In this document: positions 29,526-37,842 of the stretch, piece after piece | How positions within the stretch are numbered: position 1 is the first letter of the stretch | Layout: each line of letters begins with the position of its first letter | From: Phycisphaerae bacterium | Lineage (GTDB): Bacteria > Planctomycetota > Phycisphaerae > Phycisphaerales > SM1A02 | DNA length: 37,842 bases | NCBI GenBank assembly: GCA_002862305.1 | Contig: PKCS01000052.1 | Location: forward strand, 1 to 37,842 | Direction of reading: 5' to 3' | The notes under the pieces: model-generated | Told to the model about the DNA's origin: nothing | Seen by the model: only the letters and a program-made list of their open reading frames with translations | Databases searched by the model: none | Made by a program: the position numbers and the translations under genes

Positions 29526-31049
29526 ATGACGAACCACGACCCCACCCGCCGATCCATGCTCCTGGCCGGGGCCCTCGCCCCGGTCTCCCTCGCCTCCTCC
29601 TCCGCCCTGGCCCGGCCCGCGCGGCGAACCGTCCCGCAGGACGCGGCCGCGGGGACGCACGACGACGGACGCTCCGACCGTCCCCCCGCGCAGGCGACCC
29701 CGGACTACGTGCTCGACGTGGACACCCGCGAGCTCGACCTCTTCGGCACCCCGACCCCCGCGTTGCTCGCCAACGACCGCCTGCCCGGTACCGAGCTGCG
29801 CTACCGGGAGGGCGATTCCTTCCGGGTGCTGATCAACAACCACCTCGAGACGCCCTGCACCCTGCACTGGCACGGCCTCATCGTGCCCAACTACATGGAC
29901 GGGGTCCCCGGCATCACCCAGTACCCGATCGGGTCGCGGCAGTCGGTCTTCATCGAATACCCCCTCCGCCAGTCCGGCAGCTACTGGTACCACTCCCACT
30001 ACCAGCTGCAGGAACAGCAGGGGCTCAACGGGCCGTTCATCATCGAGGAGCGCCGTCCGGAGCACGCCTACGACCACGACGTGACCGTGTACCTCCAGGA
30101 CTGGATCCAGCAGTCCCCCTACGGCATCGTCCCCCAGATCCGGGGCGAGCAGCCCGCGACCCCCGCGGTCCGGACCCCGGTCCCCGGTGGCGCGCCCTTC
30201 CCCGGGGATCGTCCGTTCAACGTGGACGTCGACTGCCCCGGCTACCTGATGAACGGCCGCACCGAGGAGGATCCCTGGACGATGACCGTCCGCAAGGGCG
30301 ACCGCCTCCGCCTGCGGTTGATCAACGGGTCGACCTCCACGTTCTTCCGGGTCGGGCTCGCCGACCACGACCTGACCATCATCGCCGCCGACGGGCAGCC
30401 GGTGGTGCCCACCACCGCCGGCAACGTGGTGCTCGCGGTGGCCGAGCGATACGACGTCCTGGTGACCATCCGCGAGACCGGGTCCTTCGACCTTCGTGCG
30501 GTCGCCCTGGGCACCCGCCGGGGCGCCAGCGGGGTGCTGCACACCCCCGGCGCGGTCGCGCGTCCCGCCCGCGGCCCCTTCGCGTTCCGTTCCCCGGCCG
30601 GGGGCAGCGCCGACTACCCCGCCCTCCGCTCCCCGTACCCCACCACCCTTCCCGAGGGACCGGTCCGGACCTTCGACATCGAGCTCGGCGGGGAGATGAA
30701 GCGCTACCTGTGGTCGATGGCGGGGGAGTACTACCCCGAGCTCTACGTGCCGGAGGGTGACGCCGGCCCCCTCGAGGTCCGGCGGGGGGAGCGGGTGCGG
30801 ATCCGCTTCACCAACAGCACGATGATGTACCACCCGATGCACCTGCACGGGCACTTCTACCGGGTGCTGGCGAAGCCCGGCGAGTGGGACCAGCCCGATG
30901 CACCCCTGAAGGACACCGTGGCGGTCGGTCCCGGCCAGCGCATCGACATCGAGTTCACCGCCGACAATCCAGGCCACTGGTTCTTCCACTGCCACAACCT
31001 CTACCACCTCGCGAGCGGGATGGCCCGGCAGGTCCGCTACGTGGTGTGA
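29526..31049 (+). CDS. Tat-exported multicopper oxidase (laccase/CopA-like)
   Basis: This protein oxidises phenols or metal ions while reducing oxygen to water, with four coppers. N-terminal TRRSMLLAGALAPVSLASSSALA is a twin-arginine signal, so the folded, copper-loaded enzyme should act in the periplasm. All four copper motifs are intact: HWHG (residues 114-117), YWYHSH, HPMHLHGH and HCHNLYHLASGM (type 1 ligands C489, H494 and axial M499). At 507 residues and three cupredoxin domains it has normal length. The axial Met and the FHCHNLYH motif favour the CopA/metallo-oxidase side over fungal-type laccases, but the Met-rich segment of typical CopA is missing. A hairpin follows 2 bases after the stop. 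Stand-alone; no copper pump or chaperone beside it. Confidence 0.95.
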   Translation: MTNHDPTRRSMLLAGALAPVSLASSSALARPARRTVPQDAAAGTHDDGRSDRPPAQATPDYVLDVDTRELDLFGTPTPALLANDRLPGTELRYREGDSFRVLINNHLETPCTLHWHGLIVPNYMDGVPGITQYPIGSRQSVFIEYPLRQSGSYWYHSHYQLQEQQGLNGPFIIEERRPEHAYDHDVTVYLQDWIQQSPYGIVPQIRGEQPATPAVRTPVPGGAPFPGDRPFNVDVDCPGYLMNGRTEEDPWTMTVRKGDRLRLRLINGSTSTFFRVGLADHDLTIIAADGQPVVPTTAGNVVLAVAERYDVLVTIRETGSFDLRAVALGTRRGASGVLHTPGAVARPARGPFAFRSPAGGSADYPALRSPYPTTLPEGPVRTFDIELGGEMKRYLWSMAGEYYPELYVPEGDAGPLEVRRGERVRIRFTNSTMMYHPMHLHGHFYRVLAKPGEWDQPDAPLKDTVAVGPGQRIDIEFTADNPGHWFFHCHNLYHLASGMARQVRYVV

Positions 31050-31051
31050 GC

Positions 31052-31073
31052 ACCCGGGACCCTGGTCCCGGGT
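31052..31073 (+). terminator. Hairpin terminator candidate behind the multicopper oxidase
   Basis: ACCCGGGAC (31052-31060) pairs perfectly over 9 bp with 31065-31073 around a 4-base loop, starting 2 bases after the stop. No T-tract follows. Same style as hairpins at 15627 and 13164. Confidence 0.6.
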
Positions 31074-31091
31074 CCAGCCGTCGTGCCGTCG

Positions 31092-31183
31092 GATCGAGTC
31101 CGAATCGGGCTGTTTGGAGGCGATCCGGGCTGATTTGGGCGGATTCGGGTGGATCCGGGCGGATTCCCCGGTGGATCTGGGCG
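31092..31183 (+). repeat. Array of 10-bp phased repeats, consensus GATYYGGGYG
   Basis: Nine units follow in near-perfect 10-base register, starting at 31092, 31102, 31112, 31122, 31132, 31142, 31152, 31162 and 31174. The best are GATCCGGGCT (31122), GATTTGGGCG (31132), GATTCGGGTG (31142), GATCCGGGCG (31152) and GATCTGGGCG (31174). The first three are degenerate and the eighth has two extra bases. The period is close to one helical turn, so all copies face the same side of the DNA. The array ends 39 bases before a TAGACT element and about 100 bases before the exported-protein gene. The unit length is not a multiple of three, so it is not coding. Confidence 0.8.
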
Positions 31184-31222
31184 CTTCTCGGCCTTTTGGG
31201 TTCAATCTGGACGTTTTTGGCG

Positions 31223-31228
31223 TAGACT
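31223..31228 (+). promoter_or_regulatory. -10-like TAGACT upstream of the exported protein gene
   Basis: TAGACT at 31223-31228 lies 57 bases before the ATG at 31286, downstream of the phased repeats. The sequence TTCAAT at 31201, 16 bases upstream, is a weak -35 candidate. Confidence 0.4.
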
Positions 31229-31285
31229 CTTCCTAGGCCCCCCTCGGCCACATGATTGAGAAGAGAAGAGAGCGAAGGACAACCC

Positions 31286-32023
31286 ATGACCCACCAATAC
31301 GTTCCGAGCGGTTCTGTTGCATCGCTGTTGCCCGCACTGGCGGTCCTCTGTGGAGCCACCGTGCTCCAGGCGGACGTCGACGTGGCACCGGTCGTGGGCA
31401 TGTCGGTCTCCGGTGGCAGTGGCTGGAGCTACTGGCTGGACAGCGACGTCGACGGCGTGACCGGTTTCGACCCCGAGACGAACTACCACCTCTACGAGGG
31501 CGGCGCCCTCTGGGCCGAATGCGACGTGTGGTGGGACCACTGGGTCGAGGTCGACCCCGGCCTCGGGTTCGGATTCACGGTCACCAACAACCTCGACGTG
31601 GTCGAGGAGTTCACCCTGGTCGCCTTGGTCGAGGTCCCGGGCTGGTCGCGCGGCACCTTGATAAACGCCTCCCTCGGCGGGTCCGTGACCGACTCGAACT
31701 TCGACGGCTTCGCCGAGCTCGCGGGAAGCTCCGACGGCCTGCTCACCACCTTCCTCGACGGAACCAAGCAGCTGGACGTGGGACCCGGGATCACCGCCAC
31801 CGTCAGGAACTACGGTGGCACCTCGGGGATCGGCATCTACAACACTCCCGTGGTCGCCGGCCCCGGATCGACCGACGGCCTGCTCGAGGTCGAGCTCTCC
31901 TTCACCCTGACCCCGGGCGACACCGCGGCGCTGAGCGGCGCCTTCGTCGTCAACTACGTTCCTGCGCCGGGCGCCCTGCTCGCGTTCGCGGGCTTCGGGG
32001 TCGCACGCCGCCGACGGCGGTGA
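31286..32023 (+). CDS. Exported PEP-CTERM-like protein
   Basis: The 245-residue product starts at 31286 (GAAGGA 7 bases upstream) and has a signal peptide, SLLPALAVLCGATVLQAD. The mature part is a Gly/Asp/Val-rich beta protein with several Trp near its N-terminus (SGWSYWLD, WWDHWVE) and no catalytic motif. The end, VPAPGALLAFAGFGVARRRRR, has the Pro-Ala-Pro motif, a hydrophobic helix and an Arg cluster, which is the layout of a PEP-CTERM sorting signal read by exosortases in planctomycetes. It is therefore probably a surface or extracellular matrix protein. No homologue with a known role is recognised. The repeat array before its promoter suggests special regulation. Confidence 0.8.
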   Translation: MTHQYVPSGSVASLLPALAVLCGATVLQADVDVAPVVGMSVSGGSGWSYWLDSDVDGVTGFDPETNYHLYEGGALWAECDVWWDHWVEVDPGLGFGFTVTNNLDVVEEFTLVALVEVPGWSRGTLINASLGGSVTDSNFDGFAELAGSSDGLLTTFLDGTKQLDVGPGITATVRNYGGTSGIGIYNTPVVAGPGSTDGLLEVELSFTLTPGDTAALSGAFVVNYVPAPGALLAFAGFGVARRRRR

Positions 32024-32081
32024 CCGCCCACCGTTCCTGATCGACCCGTTCCCGGCACCGGCCTCCCCGCGGGAGCGGTCG

Positions 32082-32660
32082 TCACGTTCCCGACCTTGCC
32101 ACGCTCCGGGTCCCCCGTGCGCCGCATTCGGGGCACGCCGCCCGGACCGGTTCCGGCAGCTCGTGTCCGCAGGCCAGGCAGTGGGGGACTCGTTGCCGGC
32201 GGAGCTGCTGGATGCGAATCGCGAAGGCGACCACCACCACCAGCCACCCCGCGACCAGGCCCAGGGTGGTCGCGTGCACCACCGCGGGTGCGATCGCGCC
32301 TCCGCTCGCCTGCTCGAGGCTCTCCTGGATCTCGCGCATCGCCAGGGAGTACTCGAGGAACAGCGGGCCCAGCCCGCCCACCACCAGCGAGAGGACGAAC
32401 GGCCACCCCGATCCGGTGAAGGCGGTCACCGCGTAGAGCGAGCGTGCGTTCCCGTGGGGTCCGCCCACCACGATCATCGCGAGCCACGCGATCAGGACCC
32501 CCCCCCACGCCATGGTCAGGAGCACCACCGCTCCCTCGACCACCGGCAGGCCGATCACCGCCGCGGGCACCTGCAGCAGCAGCAACCCGACGAAGAGCAT
32601 GCACCCGTGGAAGAACGGCTGTCGCGCGTACCAGAAGGGTTCCCGGGGGGGGCGGGGCAT
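32082..32660 (-). CDS. Four-helix membrane protein with C-terminal zinc ribbon
   Basis: The 192-residue protein has four likely membrane helices (about 18-40, 42-66, 82-105 and 127-150). A short basic linker leads to a C-terminal zinc ribbon HCLACGHELPEPVRAACPECG with two CxxC pairs, presumably cytoplasmic. Planctomycetes have many such proteins with unknown role; the ribbon could bind protein or nucleic acid. It starts 34 bases behind pntB on the same strand and may be read from the pnt transcript. A paralogue-like end (TRHCLHCGHPF...CPECG) occurs in the 35897 gene on the other side of the pnt operon, so the two may be related copies. Function not known. Confidence 0.75.
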   Translation of the reverse strand: MPRPPREPFWYARQPFFHGCMLFVGLLLLQVPAAVIGLPVVEGAVVLLTMAWGGVLIAWLAMIVVGGPHGNARSLYAVTAFTGSGWPFVLSLVVGGLGPLFLEYSLAMREIQESLEQASGGAIAPAVVHATTLGLVAGWLVVVVAFAIRIQQLRRQRVPHCLACGHELPEPVRAACPECGARGTRSVARSGT

Positions 32661-32694
32661 CCCACCATCCTAGGCACCGGCCATCCGGTCGTGT

Positions 32695-34119
32695 TCAGGC
32701 GTCCTTCACCGCGTTGTTGAGGTCGGTCATCATCGCCTTGCCGTCCCCGAACAGCATCATGGTCTTGTCCATGTAGAAGAGGTCGTTGTCGACCCCCGCG
32801 TAGCCCACCGAGAGGGAGCGCTTCACGATCACCACCGTGCGGGCGAGGTCCGCGTCGATGATCGGCATGCCCGCGAGCGGTCCCTCGTCCTCGCGGGCCG
32901 CGGGGTTGCAGGTGTCGTTGGCGCCGATGATCAGCGCGACGTCGCACTCGGGGAACTCGGGGTTGATCTCGTCCATCTCGATGAGCTGCTCGTAGGGGAC
33001 GCTGGCCTCCGCCAGCAGCACGTTCATGTGGCCCGGCATCCGGCCCGCCACCGGGTGGATCGCGTACTTGACCTCGGTGTCGTAGCGCTCCTGGAGCAGG
33101 TCCCCGAGCTCCTTGACCTGGTGCTGGCACTGGGAGACCGCCATCCCGTAGCCGGGGACGATGATCACCTTCCGGGCGCCGTCCAGCATCATCGCGACCT
33201 CCTCGGGATCGGAGCCCGCCTTGGTCCGGGTCACCTTCTCGCGGGTGGTCCCCCCGAACTCCTTGAACAGCACGTCCCGCAGGGTGCGGTTCATCGCCTT
33301 GCACATGATGAAGGTGAGGATCAGCCCCGAGGCCCCGACCAGCGAGCCCGCGACGATCAGCACCGGGTTGCTGAAGATGAAGCCGGTGAACGCGGCGGCG
33401 ATCCCGGAGAGCGAGTTCAGCAGCGAGACCACCACCGGCATGTCCGCCCCGCCGATCGGCAGCACCAGCACCACCCCCAGCACGCAGGACAGCCCGATGA
33501 TCGTCCAGAGGTAGGCCTGGTTGGTCGGATCCCCGATCGAGAGCAGGATCAGCACCACCACCCCGAGGAGCATGAACAGCTTGACGGGGTTCAGCCAGCG
33601 CGGTCCCCAGGTGGGGGTGGGGAACCACTTGCCGCGGAGCTCGATCCCGCCCATCAGCTTGAACATCGCGAGGACCGATCCGGTCAGGGTCGCCCATCCC
33701 ACCAGGGCCGAGAGTCCCGCCGCCACCACGATCACCTGCCGGGCCAGCCCGGTGGGCAGCGCGAGCGCGGGATCCTCGATGTACTTCCAGGTCTCCGAGA
33801 GGGCGACCAGCGCGGAGGCCGCGCCCCCGAACCCGTTGAAGAGCGCGACCAGTTCCGGCATCCCGGTCATCCTGGCCCGAAGCGCCATCACCAGCCCGAT
33901 GATCGACCCGATCACGAGGCCCGCCACGATCAGTCCCCAGTTCGCCCCGCCCTCGGTCCCGACCTGCATGTCCACCAGGGTGGTGACCACCGCCACCAGC
34001 ATCCCCAGCGCCCCGTACTGGTTGCCCCGGGGCGCGGTGCGGGGATGGCCGAGCTTCTTCAACCCGAGGATGAAGAGCGCCGCGGAGGCCAGGTAGCCGA
34101 GCGGGATCCATGCGTCCAT
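32695..34119 (-). CDS. pntB: NAD(P) transhydrogenase subunit beta
   Basis: PntB, with PntA1 and PntA2, couples proton entry across the membrane to reduction of NADP+ by NADH. The 474 residues fit the family. The N-terminal two thirds are about nine hydrophobic helices (including LNSLSGIAAAFTGFI). The cytoplasmic C-terminal NADP(H) domain starts after about residue 300 and shows VIIVPGYGMAVSQCQHQV, HPVAGRMPGHMNVLLAEA, VPYEQLIEMDEIN, DVALIIGANDTCNPAA and KRSLSVGYAGVDNDLFY, the standard nucleotide loop order. The ATG at 34119 is preceded by GAGGA and lies 1 base past the pntA2 stop, so translation is coupled. Identification is certain. Confidence 0.98.
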   Translation of the reverse strand: MDAWIPLGYLASAALFILGLKKLGHPRTAPRGNQYGALGMLVAVVTTLVDMQVGTEGGANWGLIVAGLVIGSIIGLVMALRARMTGMPELVALFNGFGGAASALVALSETWKYIEDPALALPTGLARQVIVVAAGLSALVGWATLTGSVLAMFKLMGGIELRGKWFPTPTWGPRWLNPVKLFMLLGVVVLILLSIGDPTNQAYLWTIIGLSCVLGVVLVLPIGGADMPVVVSLLNSLSGIAAAFTGFIFSNPVLIVAGSLVGASGLILTFIMCKAMNRTLRDVLFKEFGGTTREKVTRTKAGSDPEEVAMMLDGARKVIIVPGYGMAVSQCQHQVKELGDLLQERYDTEVKYAIHPVAGRMPGHMNVLLAEASVPYEQLIEMDEINPEFPECDVALIIGANDTCNPAAREDEGPLAGMPIIDADLARTVVIVKRSLSVGYAGVDNDLFYMDKTMMLFGDGKAMMTDLNNAVKDA

Positions 34120-34120
34120 C

Positions 34121-34432
34121 TCAGGTCCTCTTGTTCCTTCCCGCGATCATGTTCAGCATGCGGTTGGTCACGGTGAACCCCCCGACCACGTTGATCATCG
34201 CGAGGACGATCGCCACGAAGGCGAGGATCCCCGAGACCAGGGTGTCGCCCCCCTGGTAGGCCACGTTCGCCCCGAGCAGCGCGCCGACCACGCTGATCCC
34301 CGAGATCGCGTTGGCCCCGCTCATCAGCGGGGTGTGCAGCATCGCCGGCACCTTGGTGATGACCTCGAAGCCGATGAAGATCGCCAGCATGAAGAGGGTG
34401 AGGTTCGCGATCAGTGAGGTCTCGGTGATCAT
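34121..34432 (-). CDS. pntA2: NAD(P) transhydrogenase subunit alpha part 2 (membrane)
   Basis: This 103-residue membrane piece supplies the transmembrane helices that fused enzymes carry at the C-terminus of the alpha subunit. Three to four helices are visible: LIANLTLFMLAIFIGFEVITKVP, SGISVVGALLGANVAY and GILAFVAIVLAMINVVGGFTVTNRML. The segment KVPAMLHTPLMSGANAISG is highly conserved in the family, and VVGGFTVTNRMLNMI is the usual end. The ATG (34432) overlaps the pntA1 stop by an ATGA, with GGGAG 6 bases upstream, and pntB follows after 1 base. Separation of alpha into two polypeptides is as in Rhodospirillum-type operons, not E. coli. Identification is certain. Confidence 0.97.
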   Translation of the reverse strand: MITETSLIANLTLFMLAIFIGFEVITKVPAMLHTPLMSGANAISGISVVGALLGANVAYQGGDTLVSGILAFVAIVLAMINVVGGFTVTNRMLNMIAGRNKRT

Positions 34433-35592
34433 GGAAGGCTCCCGGCGAGTCGGCTCTGGGTGGGGTGGATCGCTCCGTCACGGCACACCAGCACCCCGCC
34501 CATCCCCGGGACGTGCAGCTCGTCGCCCTCCGGGGCCCCGACCAGGACCTCGTCGTCCTCGCGGAGCACCACCGCGCCGTCCTCCACGAGGGAGCACAGG
34601 AAGGTGGTGAGGTTGTTGGCGTACAGCATGCTCGCGGTGTTGGGAAGGGTTCCGGGGAGGTTGGTGGTCCCGACCACCGTGACCCCGTGCTCGGTGGTGA
34701 CCACCTGGTCGGGGACGGTGAGCTCGCAGTTGCCGCCCACGTCCGCGTTGAGGTCCACGACCACCGCCCCGGGCTTGAAGCCGGCGACCGCGGACGCGGG
34801 GATCGTCACCGGGGCGGGGGCCCCGAAGATCCGTGCGGTGGTGATGACGAGGTCCGCGCCGGCCGCGACCTCGCAGACCGTCCGGTTCACCCGCTCGATG
34901 AACTCCGGGGTCAGCGGCTTCGCGTAGCCGGAGTCGTCCTCGAAGTCGTCCATGCCCTCGACCTCGATGAAGGTCCCGCCCACCGACTCGATCTGTTCCG
35001 CGGCCGACCGCCGGACGTCCGAGGCGTGGACCACCGCGCCGATCCGCTTGGCGGTGGCGATCGCCTGCAGGCCCGCGACCCCGCTGCCCATCACCACCAC
35101 CCGGGCGGGGCGGACGGTGCCGGCGGAGGTGGTCATCATCGGGATCGCCCTCGTGGCGTGCGCGGCGCCCAGCAGCACCGCCTTGTACCCGGCGAGGTTG
35201 TCCTGGCTGGAATTGACGTCCATCGACTGCGCCCGCGAGAGTCGACGCGGGATCATGTCCATCGAGCAGAGGGTGATCCCCCCCTCGAGGCAGGCGGTGA
35301 CGAACCCGGGGTTCCGGAAGGGGTCGGCGACGCAGGTGAGCTGGGTCCCGCGGGCGATTCCCTCGCTCCCCGGGAAGCGCACGCAGGCGAGCTGCTCGCA
35401 GCCCAGGGCACCCGCCCGATCGACGAGGCTGGCGCCCGCGGCCTCGTACTCGGCGTCCGGGTGGTTCGCCCGCTCGCCCGCGCCGCGCTCGACGTGCACC
35501 TCGAAGCCCGCGCGCAGGAGCTTCCGGAGGCACGACGGAACGATCCCCACGCGGGGTTCGTCATCGGCTTCTCTTGGTACACCGAGTTTCAT
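34429..35592 (-). CDS. pntA1: NAD(P) transhydrogenase subunit alpha part 1 (NAD-binding)
   Basis: This soluble subunit binds NAD(H) and hands a hydride to PntB. It starts MKLGVPREADDEPRVGIVPSCLRKLL, as expected for the alanine dehydrogenase/PNT N-terminal domain. Then follow SMDVNSSQDNLAGYKAVL and the Rossmann motif VVVMGSGVAGLQAIATAKRIGAVVHASDVR, then QVVTTEHGVTVVG. I chose the ATG at 35592 (387 residues); the frame is open for 65 codons further but those residues are Pro/Arg-rich without similarity. Ribosome site is weak. A 13-bp tandem repeat and a TATCCT element lie directly upstream. It heads an operon pntA1-pntA2-pntB, possibly including the zinc-ribbon gene at 32082. Identification is certain. 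Confidence 0.96.
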   Translation of the reverse strand: MKLGVPREADDEPRVGIVPSCLRKLLRAGFEVHVERGAGERANHPDAEYEAAGASLVDRAGALGCEQLACVRFPGSEGIARGTQLTCVADPFRNPGFVTACLEGGITLCSMDMIPRRLSRAQSMDVNSSQDNLAGYKAVLLGAAHATRAIPMMTTSAGTVRPARVVVMGSGVAGLQAIATAKRIGAVVHASDVRRSAAEQIESVGGTFIEVEGMDDFEDDSGYAKPLTPEFIERVNRTVCEVAAGADLVITTARIFGAPAPVTIPASAVAGFKPGAVVVDLNADVGGNCELTVPDQVVTTEHGVTVVGTTNLPGTLPNTASMLYANNLTTFLCSLVEDGAVVLREDDEVLVGAPEGDELHVPGMGGVLVCRDGAIHPTQSRLAGSLP

Positions 35593-35896
35593 GCTGCGCC
35601 CTGGACGAAGTGCGAACCCAAGTCCGGAAGGGAAGTCCGGATGGGAAGTCCGGGAAGGATAGCCCACTTCACGGGGTGCAGTCGGACTTTCGTCGGCCCG
35701 GGCGGGTGCGGGCGCCGATCCCCCCGCGATCGGCTCGGTCGGGTGGCAGTGGGGGGGCGGGCGGTCGCCATCCTGCAGCCGTCCCACGAACGTAAGGTGT
35801 TTCGATGCCGAGGCATGCAGTTCGGGGGTCGACCGGCCTGGTCGCCTCGATCAGGAGTCCGGGGGACGTGATGGGAGCGGTTGCGGACCAGCGAGA
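35593..35896. other. 304-base intergenic region upstream of pntA1
   Basis: No gene is seen. Apart from the tandem repeats and the TATCCT element close to pntA1, I see only GC-rich sequence without clear hairpins or reading frames. It separates the pnt operon from the zinc-ribbon gene on the same strand. Confidence 0.5.
35620..35661 (-). repeat. Three 13-bp tandem repeats with a -10-like TATCCT upstream of pntA1
   Basis: On the plus strand the units are AAGTCCGGAAGGG (35620-35632), AAGTCCGGATGGG (35633-35645) and AAGTCCGGGAAGG (35646-35658). Two of the three contain the palindrome TCCGGA. On the minus strand TATCCT at 35661-35656 may be a -10, so transcription would begin inside the repeats, which would then lie in the pntA1 5' leader. 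They could serve as an operator or leader element, or be simple slippage. Confidence 0.5.
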
Positions 35897-36178
35897 CTAG
35901 AGAGTTCGCGGGTCATGGCAGCCGCACTCCGGGCACGTTTCCAGGTCGCCCCGCGAGAACGGGTGGCCACAGTGCAGGCAGTGGCGGGTCGTGCTGCGTC
36001 CGACCGCCGTCGCCTGGAACCAGAGGAGGATGACCTCCAGGAGCCACGCCGTCACCAGGAGTACCGCGGCCGCCATGATGAGCCCCCTGGCCATGGGGAC
36101 GCCCGTGACCTCCGCGAAGCCATCCTCACCGACGGCGGACCAGATCCGGTATTCGAGCCAGAGCATCGGAAACGGCAC
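35897..36178 (-). CDS. Small membrane protein with C-terminal zinc ribbon, probably 5'-truncated
   Basis: The visible 93 residues (GTG at 36178; ATG at 36166 also possible) have one clear membrane helix (LIMAAAVLLVTAWLLEVILLWF) and a zinc ribbon, RHCLHCGHPFSRGDLETCPECG. The frame stays open for 12 more codons to a TGA at 36215-36217 and reads IQRLLWSLGLVPFP before the GTG. That looks like the end of another membrane helix rather than a leader. Exactly there (36200-36215) base composition drops to that of the helicase region. I infer that an insertion removed the N-terminal part of a protein like the one at 32082. No ribosome site is visible. It may be a pseudogene; the residual part may still be translated. 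Confidence 0.6.
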   Translation of the reverse strand: MPFPMLWLEYRIWSAVGEDGFAEVTGVPMARGLIMAAAVLLVTAWLLEVILLWFQATAVGRSTTRHCLHCGHPFSRGDLETCPECGCHDPRTL

Positions 36179-36202
36179 GAGGCCGAGCGACCAGAGGAGC
36201 CT

Positions 36203-36237
36203 TTGAATTAGGCTTCAGGAAGATCGGATTAATTCAA
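36203..36237 (-). terminator. Inverted repeat at the helicase stop and composition boundary
   Basis: TTGAATTA (36203-36210) and TAATTCAA (36230-36237) form a perfect 8-bp inverted repeat around 19 bases. The right arm covers the helicase stop (36229-36231). It could be a terminator for the helicase or an end sequence of the inserted DNA. A smaller stem AGCCT/AGGCT overlaps its left part. Confidence 0.35.
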
Positions 36238-37842
36238 GTCCGCTTCTAACTGTTGCTTGATTACATCATGCATTCGTCGGATTGCGTGATCTCGATTGGA
36301 GTACCAGTCAGTCGACCAGATCCTGTGCAAAGTCCATCCTTTGCTCTCGATAATGTCCTGGCGTATCGCATCTCGTTCCCGGGCCGATCTTGAAGAGTGA
36401 TAGGTGGCGCCATCACACTCGATACCCATGACGAAGTTGTCAGATCCAGGGACTCGTACTCCTATATCAATGTAATAGCCTGCGACACCAACTTGTGGAA
36501 CGGCTTCGAGTCCCATGCCCTCAATGACTGTTGAGACTGATACCTCGAACTCTGAATCGGGTCCACGCCCTGTTTCAAGTCCCGTTTCTGCTAAAAGTCC
36601 AGTACGGGCATAGTGGATGTAGTTTCTCATCGCATTCCGACCAGGTTGATCTGGACCGCCAGTGATGTCGGTTTCGAGCATGGATGAAAAAACTCGAACA
36701 TGCTTCCTAGCTCTGGTAACAAGTACATTTAGTCTCCGCCACCCCCCGGGCATGTTGATCGGACCAAATCGCTGCGGAACAGAGTCTGCCCCAGGCGGAC
36801 GGCCATACGTAAAGGAAACGAAAATGTTGTCTCGTTCATCGCCTTGAACGTTTTCAAGGTTTTTGATGAAGAGCGGTTCGCGAAGTGCATCAAGGCGGTT
36901 GATCAGATTCCGAAGCGGTAATTCACGTTGACATCGACTATCTAAAATGTCGCCAATCAGAATCGATTGCTGCTTATTCATGGCAGCCACGCCGATGGAC
37001 GGCATTCGATCTCCAAGGTGTTCGTATTGCAACGCATGATCGATAATTGCATCTACTACTGCTTCTGCCTCGATTCGATTAACTTGGCCGCTACCAAATT
37101 CGCCATTCGGGACGTGAACGAATTCGATGCCAAGCCTTCCGCCAATCTTATGTGGTGCAGGAAAGATCACGAGATCGTTGTCGTAAAAGTGCTTGTTCGA
37201 GAAAGCGATCAATGACTCATGCTCACTTCGATAGTGCATTTTCAGCCTGCGATACCGCTTCGGGGGCATTGACTTCTGGGCTACTTCGAGGATCGATTCA
37301 CTGTCGGCAGATGCAAGTTGGTCATCAGGGTCAAGGTCGTCTGGATTGATTGTGCTGGAAAAGTATCTGGAAGGTGGAAGTTGCTTGGGATCGCCAACAA
37401 CCACAAACTGTTTCGCGCGCGCGATTGATCCGAGTGCATCGCCCGGCTTGACCTGAGATGCCTCGTCGAAAATTACCAGATCAAACAGGTCACACTCTTT
37501 GGGGAGAACTTCCGCAACGGTCGTGGGATTCAGCATCATGCAAGGCTGAAGTTGGAGCAGGGCATTGCTAGCGCGGCTGAACAACGGTCGAAGTTTGAGG
37601 TGTCGCTTACTCTTCCCAATCTCGTTTTGAATTAGATGCAGTTCCGATTTGTCACGCACCCTCGGTCCAGCTGATCCTCTTGTGACTTCTCCGTCCAGCA
37701 CGTGGCAGTCTTTGGCAATCTGGCTCCAGGCAAATTCGCGAAGCTCGGCATCGATTTTCTTGAATTCTGATCGGGCGGAATTTAATTGATCACCGGTGAT
37801 GGTGTTCAAATCTTCGGACGAATCGAAAATCCTAGTTACATG
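36229..37842 (-). CDS. Superfamily 1 helicase with C-terminal Vsr/MTES_1575-like nuclease (5' end outside window)
   Basis: The minus-strand frame is open to the window end; at least 537 codons of a larger protein are present. Motif II is DEAS (FDEASQV), motif III VGDPKQLPP, then HYRSEHESLIAFSN, motif V ENVQGDERDNIFVSF and motif VI RRLNVLVTRARKHV, so this is an Upf1/DNA2-like SF1 ATPase. The last 130 residues carry a nuclease of the restriction-like fold: EFEVSVSTVIEGMG, YYIDIGV, GIECDGATYHSSRSARERDAIRQ and HRIWSTDWY, as in MTES_1575/Vsr-like (PF18741) domains. Motif I (Walker A) lies upstream. The pairing is known from DUF4011-helicase-Vsr proteins in anti-phage defence islands; that role is inferred. 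Lower GC than neighbours suggests recent transfer. Confidence 0.9.
   Translation of the reverse strand, partial: HVTRIFDSSEDLNTITGDQLNSARSEFKKIDAELREFAWSQIAKDCHVLDGEVTRGSAGPRVRDKSELHLIQNEIGKSKRHLKLRPLFSRASNALLQLQPCMMLNPTTVAEVLPKECDLFDLVIFDEASQVKPGDALGSIARAKQFVVVGDPKQLPPSRYFSSTINPDDLDPDDQLASADSESILEVAQKSMPPKRYRRLKMHYRSEHESLIAFSNKHFYDNDLVIFPAPHKIGGRLGIEFVHVPNGEFGSGQVNRIEAEAVVDAIIDHALQYEHLGDRMPSIGVAAMNKQQSILIGDILDSRCQRELPLRNLINRLDALREPLFIKNLENVQGDERDNIFVSFTYGRPPGADSVPQRFGPINMPGGWRRLNVLVTRARKHVRVFSSMLETDITGGPDQPGRNAMRNYIHYARTGLLAETGLETGRGPDSEFEVSVSTVIEGMGLEAVPQVGVAGYYIDIGVRVPGSDNFVMGIECDGATYHSSRSARERDAIRQDIIESKGWTLHRIWSTDWYSNRDHAIRRMHDVIKQQLEADLN

What the first reader, a model, noticed from the sequence alone, without database searches (positions are those of the whole stretch)
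36200..37842. Edge of a low-GC island carrying a helicase-nuclease fusion of defence type
At about 36,200 composition falls abruptly: I counted 27 of 60 G/C at 36241-36300 against 45 of 60 at 34501-34560. The gene beyond is an SF1 helicase fused to a Vsr/MTES_1575-like nuclease, an architecture reported in phage-defence islands (DUF4011-helicase-Vsr, also called Hhe). Only its C-terminal half is visible. The genes to its right could be an undescribed defence cassette. Seen: motifs, composition. Inferred: defence role and transfer.
Basis: partly seen in the sequence, partly recalled or inferred. Interest (0 to 1): 0.72.

Follow-up and report, generated by a model that had tools for sequence, protein, structure and literature searches.

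The report
Partial foreign Hhe-type defence gene
The end of this DNA piece carries the last part of a probably borrowed gene for a DNA-unwinding and DNA-cutting protein related to the known bacterial anti-phage protein Hhe, so it is a sound but ordinary find, and whether more defence genes lie beyond the end of the piece cannot be seen.

Summary
G+C steps at 36,202 from 0.69 to 0.50; third codon positions fall from 0.87-0.97 to 0.50. The window is a whole contig, so nothing can be read past 37,842. ORF 36,229-37,842 (minus) is the C-terminal 537 residues of an SF1 helicase fused to an MTES_1575 (Vsr-like) nuclease, with motifs II-VI and nuclease residues present. Five of five close full-length relatives scanned have DUF4011. 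It groups with a Klebsiella plasmid protein annotated anti-phage Hhe (12-row clade, SH-aLRT 98), not with the nuclease-degenerate DUF4011 helicases common in its own taxonomic family. Four of four other genomes of its genus lack it, three of them incomplete. The step coincides with the cut end of a zinc-ribbon gene, which fits insertion; an assembly chimera is not excluded. New member of a known kind. The 'undescribed cassette' is untestable here and has little support: ten close relatives share no neighbouring gene family.

The parts
36229..37842 (-). C-terminal 537 residues of a DUF4011-type SF1 helicase fused to a Vsr-like nuclease (Hhe/PDC-S37 group); 5' end runs off the contig; own stop codon at 36229-36231
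36262..36549 (-). MTES_1575 (Vsr-like) nuclease domain, residues 432-527, with D459, E475, D477
   Evidence: coordinates worked out from residue numbers
36706..37467 (-). SF1 helicase motifs II (DEAS, from residue 126) to VI (residues 369-379)
   Evidence: coordinates worked out from residue numbers; motif names recalled
36184..36210 (.). junction: G+C change point at 36,202; surviving homology of the zinc-ribbon gene begins at about 36,184; one arm of an 8-base inverted repeat at 36203-36210 (other arm 36230-36237)
35897..36214 (-). remnant of a zinc-ribbon membrane-protein gene lacking about 85-95 N-terminal residues relative to its paralogue at 32082-32660

Best explanation
A foreign gene of the Hhe group (DUF4011, SF1 helicase, Vsr-like nuclease in one polypeptide) lies in the chromosome of this bacterium next to, and probably inserted into, a zinc-ribbon membrane-protein gene. 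Shown: the composition step, the C-terminal part with helicase motifs II-VI and nuclease residues, its place among Hhe-type proteins, its patchy distribution, the cut neighbour gene. Inferred: that the missing part is DUF4011 plus helicase motif I; that the join is real and is an insertion; that the protein acts against phages; and how: the helicase translocates on or senses abnormal or invading DNA and the C-terminal nuclease cuts it, in one polypeptide that needs no partner gene.
For: Domain content and scores; best relatives 50% identical, and 8 of the 10 best-scoring ones end within 22 residues of the same point, so the C terminus is native; DUF4011 in 5 of 5 full-length relatives; clade with an Hhe-annotated Klebsiella plasmid protein, SH-aLRT 98, without any same-family row; 63 of 63 aligned proteins keep DEAS, HYRS and QGDER, and all 12 rows of its clade, the window included, are among the 43 of 63 that keep D459-E475-D477; absent from 4 of 4 other genomes of the genus; third-position G+C 0.50 against 0.87-0.97 for seven neighbouring genes; change point 36,202 falls at the broken end of the zinc-ribbon gene; in 3 of 10 close relatives (L152, L153, L159) the gene is likewise a low-G+C islet of about its own length.
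Against: The N-terminal part is not in the bin. No tRNA or long direct repeat was seen at the edge and no mobile-element gene could be read there. The other edge was not found. Three of the four other genomes of the genus are only 54-79% complete. In 7 of 10 close relatives the gene is not a low-G+C islet. The tree is a quick one without bootstrap and the window's branch is long, 0.91. Four full-length close relatives score 1240-1969 bits, below NCBI's 2000-bit cut-off for Hhe. I saw no phage assay for this protein or its near relatives.
Confidence: 0.7

Rival explanations
1. Assembly chimera: the last 1.6 kb comes from another, lower-G+C organism of the same sample and was joined to this contig by mistake.
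For: The foreign piece is at the contig end, only 1.6 kb long, and no second part or second edge was found in the bin; the gene on the left is cut at the join.
Against: The foreign side begins about 27 bases beyond a native stop codon rather than inside a gene; the bin's estimated contamination is low, 0.23%; in 3 of 10 relatives the same kind of gene is a low-G+C islet in a higher-G+C region.
Confidence: 0.2
2. A conserved DUF4011 helicase of the taxonomic family with a housekeeping or genome-maintenance role.
For: 28 of 180 other family genomes have a homologue; in genus g29, 15 of at least 16 genomes do; a DUF4011 gene is a core flank of a defence hotspot in every Pseudomonas aeruginosa isolate (PMC10250203, two passages read).
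Against: The window protein is not in the clade of 19 same-family rows (SH-aLRT 100) and keeps the nuclease Asp that those 19 have replaced by Ser or Gly; absent in 4 of 4 other genomes of its genus; foreign composition.
Confidence: 0.04
3. Edge of a larger defence island or mobile element with further, perhaps undescribed, genes to the right.
For: Among 72 neighbour proteins of ten close relatives (of 126 neighbouring ORFs found) some match models of type I restriction-modification, TIR, PifA/KAP NTPase, DrmD and Fic (tallies only, 25 of 301 and 25 of 78 families shown, most with one member).
Against: No neighbour family is shared by any of 45 locus pairs; other neighbours match metabolic families; in L152, L153 and L159 the low-G+C stretch is about the size of the gene. 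Nothing right of 37,842 can be read.
Confidence: 0.06

Closest known systems
Hhe (DUF4011-helicase-Vsr, single-gene anti-phage system; NCBIfam NF042953, PADLOC PDLC02194)
   Same: Helicase motifs, Vsr-like nuclease, 46% identity to a Klebsiella plasmid protein annotated as anti-phage Hhe, same clade.
   Different: The Klebsiella protein runs about 128 residues beyond the point matched to residue 527, this one 10; four full-length near relatives fall below NCBI's Hhe cut-off.
PDC-S37 (PADLOC candidate, PDLC05009)
   Same: Best PADLOC model for the fragment and for 4 of 5 close full-length relatives.
   Different: The model has about 200 further C-terminal positions without counterpart here. That it is only a candidate is recalled from the PADLOC naming.
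ProA (NCBIfam NF058533, 'anti-phage protein ProA')
   Same: Similar over the same region, 569.8 bits for the fragment.
   Different: Scores below Hhe for the fragment and for 4 of 4 full-length relatives. I found no paper on it (listing only).
Hachiman (HamAB)
   Same: Works like: a helicase sensor governing a nuclease (start of the abstract of PMC12278908 as listed).
   Different: Two proteins there, one polypeptide here. Not a member.

Membership tests
Hhe | N-terminal DUF4011 | not testable with these tools
   Would lie beyond the contig end; DUF4011 search of the bin found nothing; present in 5 of 5 close relatives scanned.
Hhe | SF1 helicase with motif I (Walker A) | not testable with these tools
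   Would lie in the missing part; the 7 full-length relatives aligned carry it.
Hhe | SF1 helicase motifs II-VI | tested here: met
Hhe | C-terminal Vsr-like (MTES_1575) nuclease with catalytic residues | tested here: met
   Pfam 107.7 bits over a 38.2 cut-off; D459, E475, D477 present; that these are the catalytic residues is inferred from conservation.
Hhe | NCBIfam NF042953 equivalog cut-off (2000 bits) | tested here: inconclusive
   660.5 bits for a fragment that cannot be expected to reach it; 4 full-length relatives 1240-1969, all below.
Hhe | Same clade as an annotated Hhe | tested here: met
   12-row clade, SH-aLRT 98, quick tree without bootstrap.
Hhe | Protection against phage | not tested
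   Needs an assay.
Same-family nuclease-degenerate DUF4011 helicase | Placement in the 19-row same-family clade and loss of the nuclease Asp | tested here: not met

The most novel reading that the evidence does not exclude
The window protein and its nearest kin (L133, L118, L119, L135; SH-aLRT 97) are a separate, tail-less subtype of DUF4011-helicase-nuclease that lies between Hhe and PDC-S37, below the Hhe cut-off, and here sits at the edge of an island whose unread part holds further, undescribed defence genes.
Probability: 0.08. Interest if true: 0.5.

Novelty: new member of a known kind. Interest (0 to 1): 0.2.

Why it matters
It adds one probably transferred Hhe-group gene in a high-G+C lineage and shows that the DUF4011-helicase proteins in this group of bacteria include a patchy branch with intact nuclease residues and a same-family branch in which the nuclease Asp is lost. 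That split gives a ready comparison for asking whether the nuclease is what makes the protein an anti-phage system.

Tried and rejected
Considered and rejected: that the protein is truncated at its C terminus by the junction. The nine nearest loci first in hand (six same-family, three from named genomes) run on 191-293 residues after the aligned part, but 8 of the 10 best-scoring relatives found later end 0-22 residues after it, so the end is native.

Considered and rejected: that contig C21 is itself a contaminant, because the four other same-genus genomes lack a DNA match to its transhydrogenase region and only one has a weak protein match. Tetranucleotide make-up and G+C put it with the bin.

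Led nowhere: viral contigs (2 stretches matched a pattern, none a relative); the other edge of the insertion, sought with the N-terminal part of the zinc-ribbon paralogue (only itself and one match at E 0.08); an empty site in relatives (G129 has the transhydrogenase genes, but its contig ends about 0.5 kb past them and its two zinc-ribbon matches are on other contigs); tRNAs in the window and Rfam families in 30,000-37,842 (none). Structure prediction and fold search were not run, since sequence families already give the domains. Papers: seven searches for DUF4011, MTES_1575, Hhe, PDC-S37 and ProA; no mechanism study of Hhe stood in their listings, in a library that lacks most subscription papers. 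I read passages only, in five papers.

Full report
What is there. The window is the whole of contig C21 of a 2.67-Mb, 103-contig genome bin estimated 96.6% complete and 0.23% contaminated. A single change-point fit puts the G+C step at 36,202; to its right G+C is 0.499, lower than any of 465 windows of 1.6 kb from 13 of the bin's 103 contigs (minimum 0.614). Third codon positions are 0.50 G+C in the last ORF and 0.87-0.97 in seven genes to its left. The contig ends 1.6 kb later.

The gene. ORF 36,229-37,842 on the minus strand is open at its 5' end. It matches Pfam AAA_11, AAA_12 and MTES_1575, PADLOC PDC-S37 (601.2 bits) and Hhe (504.5 bits), and NCBIfam Hhe_antiphage (660.5 bits) and antiphage_ProA (569.8 bits). 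DEAS, HYRS, QGDER and R369, R370 and R377 are unvaried in all 63 aligned proteins, and the nuclease residues D459, E475 and D477 are present. That these are SF1 motifs II, IV, V and VI and a PD-(D/E)XK-like active site is recalled knowledge. The five full-length close relatives scanned all have DUF4011 at the N terminus, then helicase, then MTES_1575. The missing part was not found elsewhere in the bin (PDC-S37 model; DUF4011).

Where it belongs. A homologue at E 1e-30 is found in 29 of 181 genomes of the taxonomic family, this one included, and in none of the four others of the genus (three of those four are 54-79% complete, so absence there is weak evidence). At 1e-75 it is in 50 of 400 genomes drawn from the order and 86 of 392 from the phylum; at 1e-5 in 426 of 72,556 plasmid records, 239 of them Klebsiella. 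The best relatives, at 48-50%, are in other families of the order and phylum. A quick maximum-likelihood tree of 63 rows (one short row, L030, left out) places the window in a 12-row clade (SH-aLRT 98) with a Klebsiella plasmid protein annotated 'anti-phage protein Hhe' and with no row of its own family; a 5-row set (97) holds it with L133, L118, L119 and L135. The window's own branch is long (0.91), and the tree has no bootstrap. Hhe need not be patchy everywhere: in Vibrio europaeus it is reported missing from one strain only (PMC13249269, passages read).

A second branch. Nineteen of the 27 same-family rows form a separate clade (100). In all nineteen the residue aligned to D459 is Ser (16) or Gly (3), while E475 and D477 remain. 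Of 66 pairs among 12 of their loci, 40 share a neighbouring gene family; of 45 pairs among ten loci of the Hhe-type clade none do, and of 28 pairs among eight other same-family loci none do either. The first group is more closely related among itself, which alone raises shared synteny, so this contrast is suggestive only.

The C terminus. The nine nearest loci first in hand run on 191-293 residues after the aligned part, which at first looked like a truncation here. But 8 of the 10 best-scoring relatives end 0-22 residues after it, so this protein ends where most of its nearest kin end. A paper that describes the MTES_1575 nuclease as a novel Vsr REase lists two winged-helix domains, overlapping DUF3320, after it in that protein (PMC3710099, two passages read); I did not test the tails for that domain.

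The edge. Left of the step, the ORF 35,897-36,214 (minus) aligns to the second half of the 192-residue zinc-ribbon membrane protein at 32,082-32,660 (score 123; 500 shuffles: mean 31, maximum 66) and lacks its first 85-95 residues with the N-terminal hydrophobic stretches. The surviving homology begins at about 36,184. So the composition step and the cut end of a resident gene coincide within about 20 bases, and the foreign gene's stop codon begins 27 bases further on. This fits an insertion into the zinc-ribbon gene. It would also fit an assembly chimera; that the foreign side begins just beyond an intact stop codon, and that in 3 of 10 relatives (L152, L153, L159) the gene also forms a low-G+C islet about its own length, favours a true insertion but does not prove it; in the other 7 no such islet is seen. 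An 8-base perfect inverted repeat (TTGAATTA/TAATTCAA) spans the junction; it may be chance.

Neighbours in relatives. Around ten relatives 126 neighbouring ORFs were found; I scanned 72 of them. PADLOC and Pfam tallies (25 of 301 and 25 of 78 families shown) include type I restriction-modification subunits, TIR domains, PifA/KAP NTPase, Fic and DrmD-like proteins, but also tRNA synthetase, sulfatases, cyclophilins and other metabolic families. The tallies do not say which locus each comes from, and one protein can match many models. The gene thus occurs with both kinds of neighbour, as expected for a one-gene system.

Mechanism. Helicase and nuclease in one chain suggest that DNA sensing or translocation by the helicase feeds or licenses cleavage by the nuclease. 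Hachiman, where a helicase restrains a nuclease until damaged DNA is met, is a tested precedent for the principle (start of the abstract in the listing; the one passage read, lists Hhe among defence systems with SF1/SF2 helicases). That Hhe itself protected E. coli in the screen of Gao and colleagues (Science 2020) is recalled, not read here.

Verdict.

Noticed in passing
L010-L028 (same-family loci; 19 rows): A same-family clade of DUF4011-helicase proteins has lost the nuclease Asp (Ser in 16, Gly in 3) and often shares neighbours; in genus g29, 15 of at least 16 genomes have a homologue and 14 of these are placed in this clade. Perhaps a domesticated, nuclease-dead branch.
   Followed up: partly
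L077-L080 against L064-L076: The four other genomes filed in the same genus show 0.58-0.59 G+C in one 15-kb sample each, this bin 0.66-0.71 in 13 samples, a large gap within one genus.
   Followed up: no
34400-36220: The region of the transhydrogenase alpha-subunit genes has a 75%-identical DNA counterpart in a genome of another genus (G129), while the four other same-genus genomes show no DNA match and one weak protein match to the alpha subunit.
   Followed up: no
36203-36237: Perfect 8-base inverted repeat (19 bases between the arms) across the junction and the stop codon of the helicase gene.
   Followed up: no
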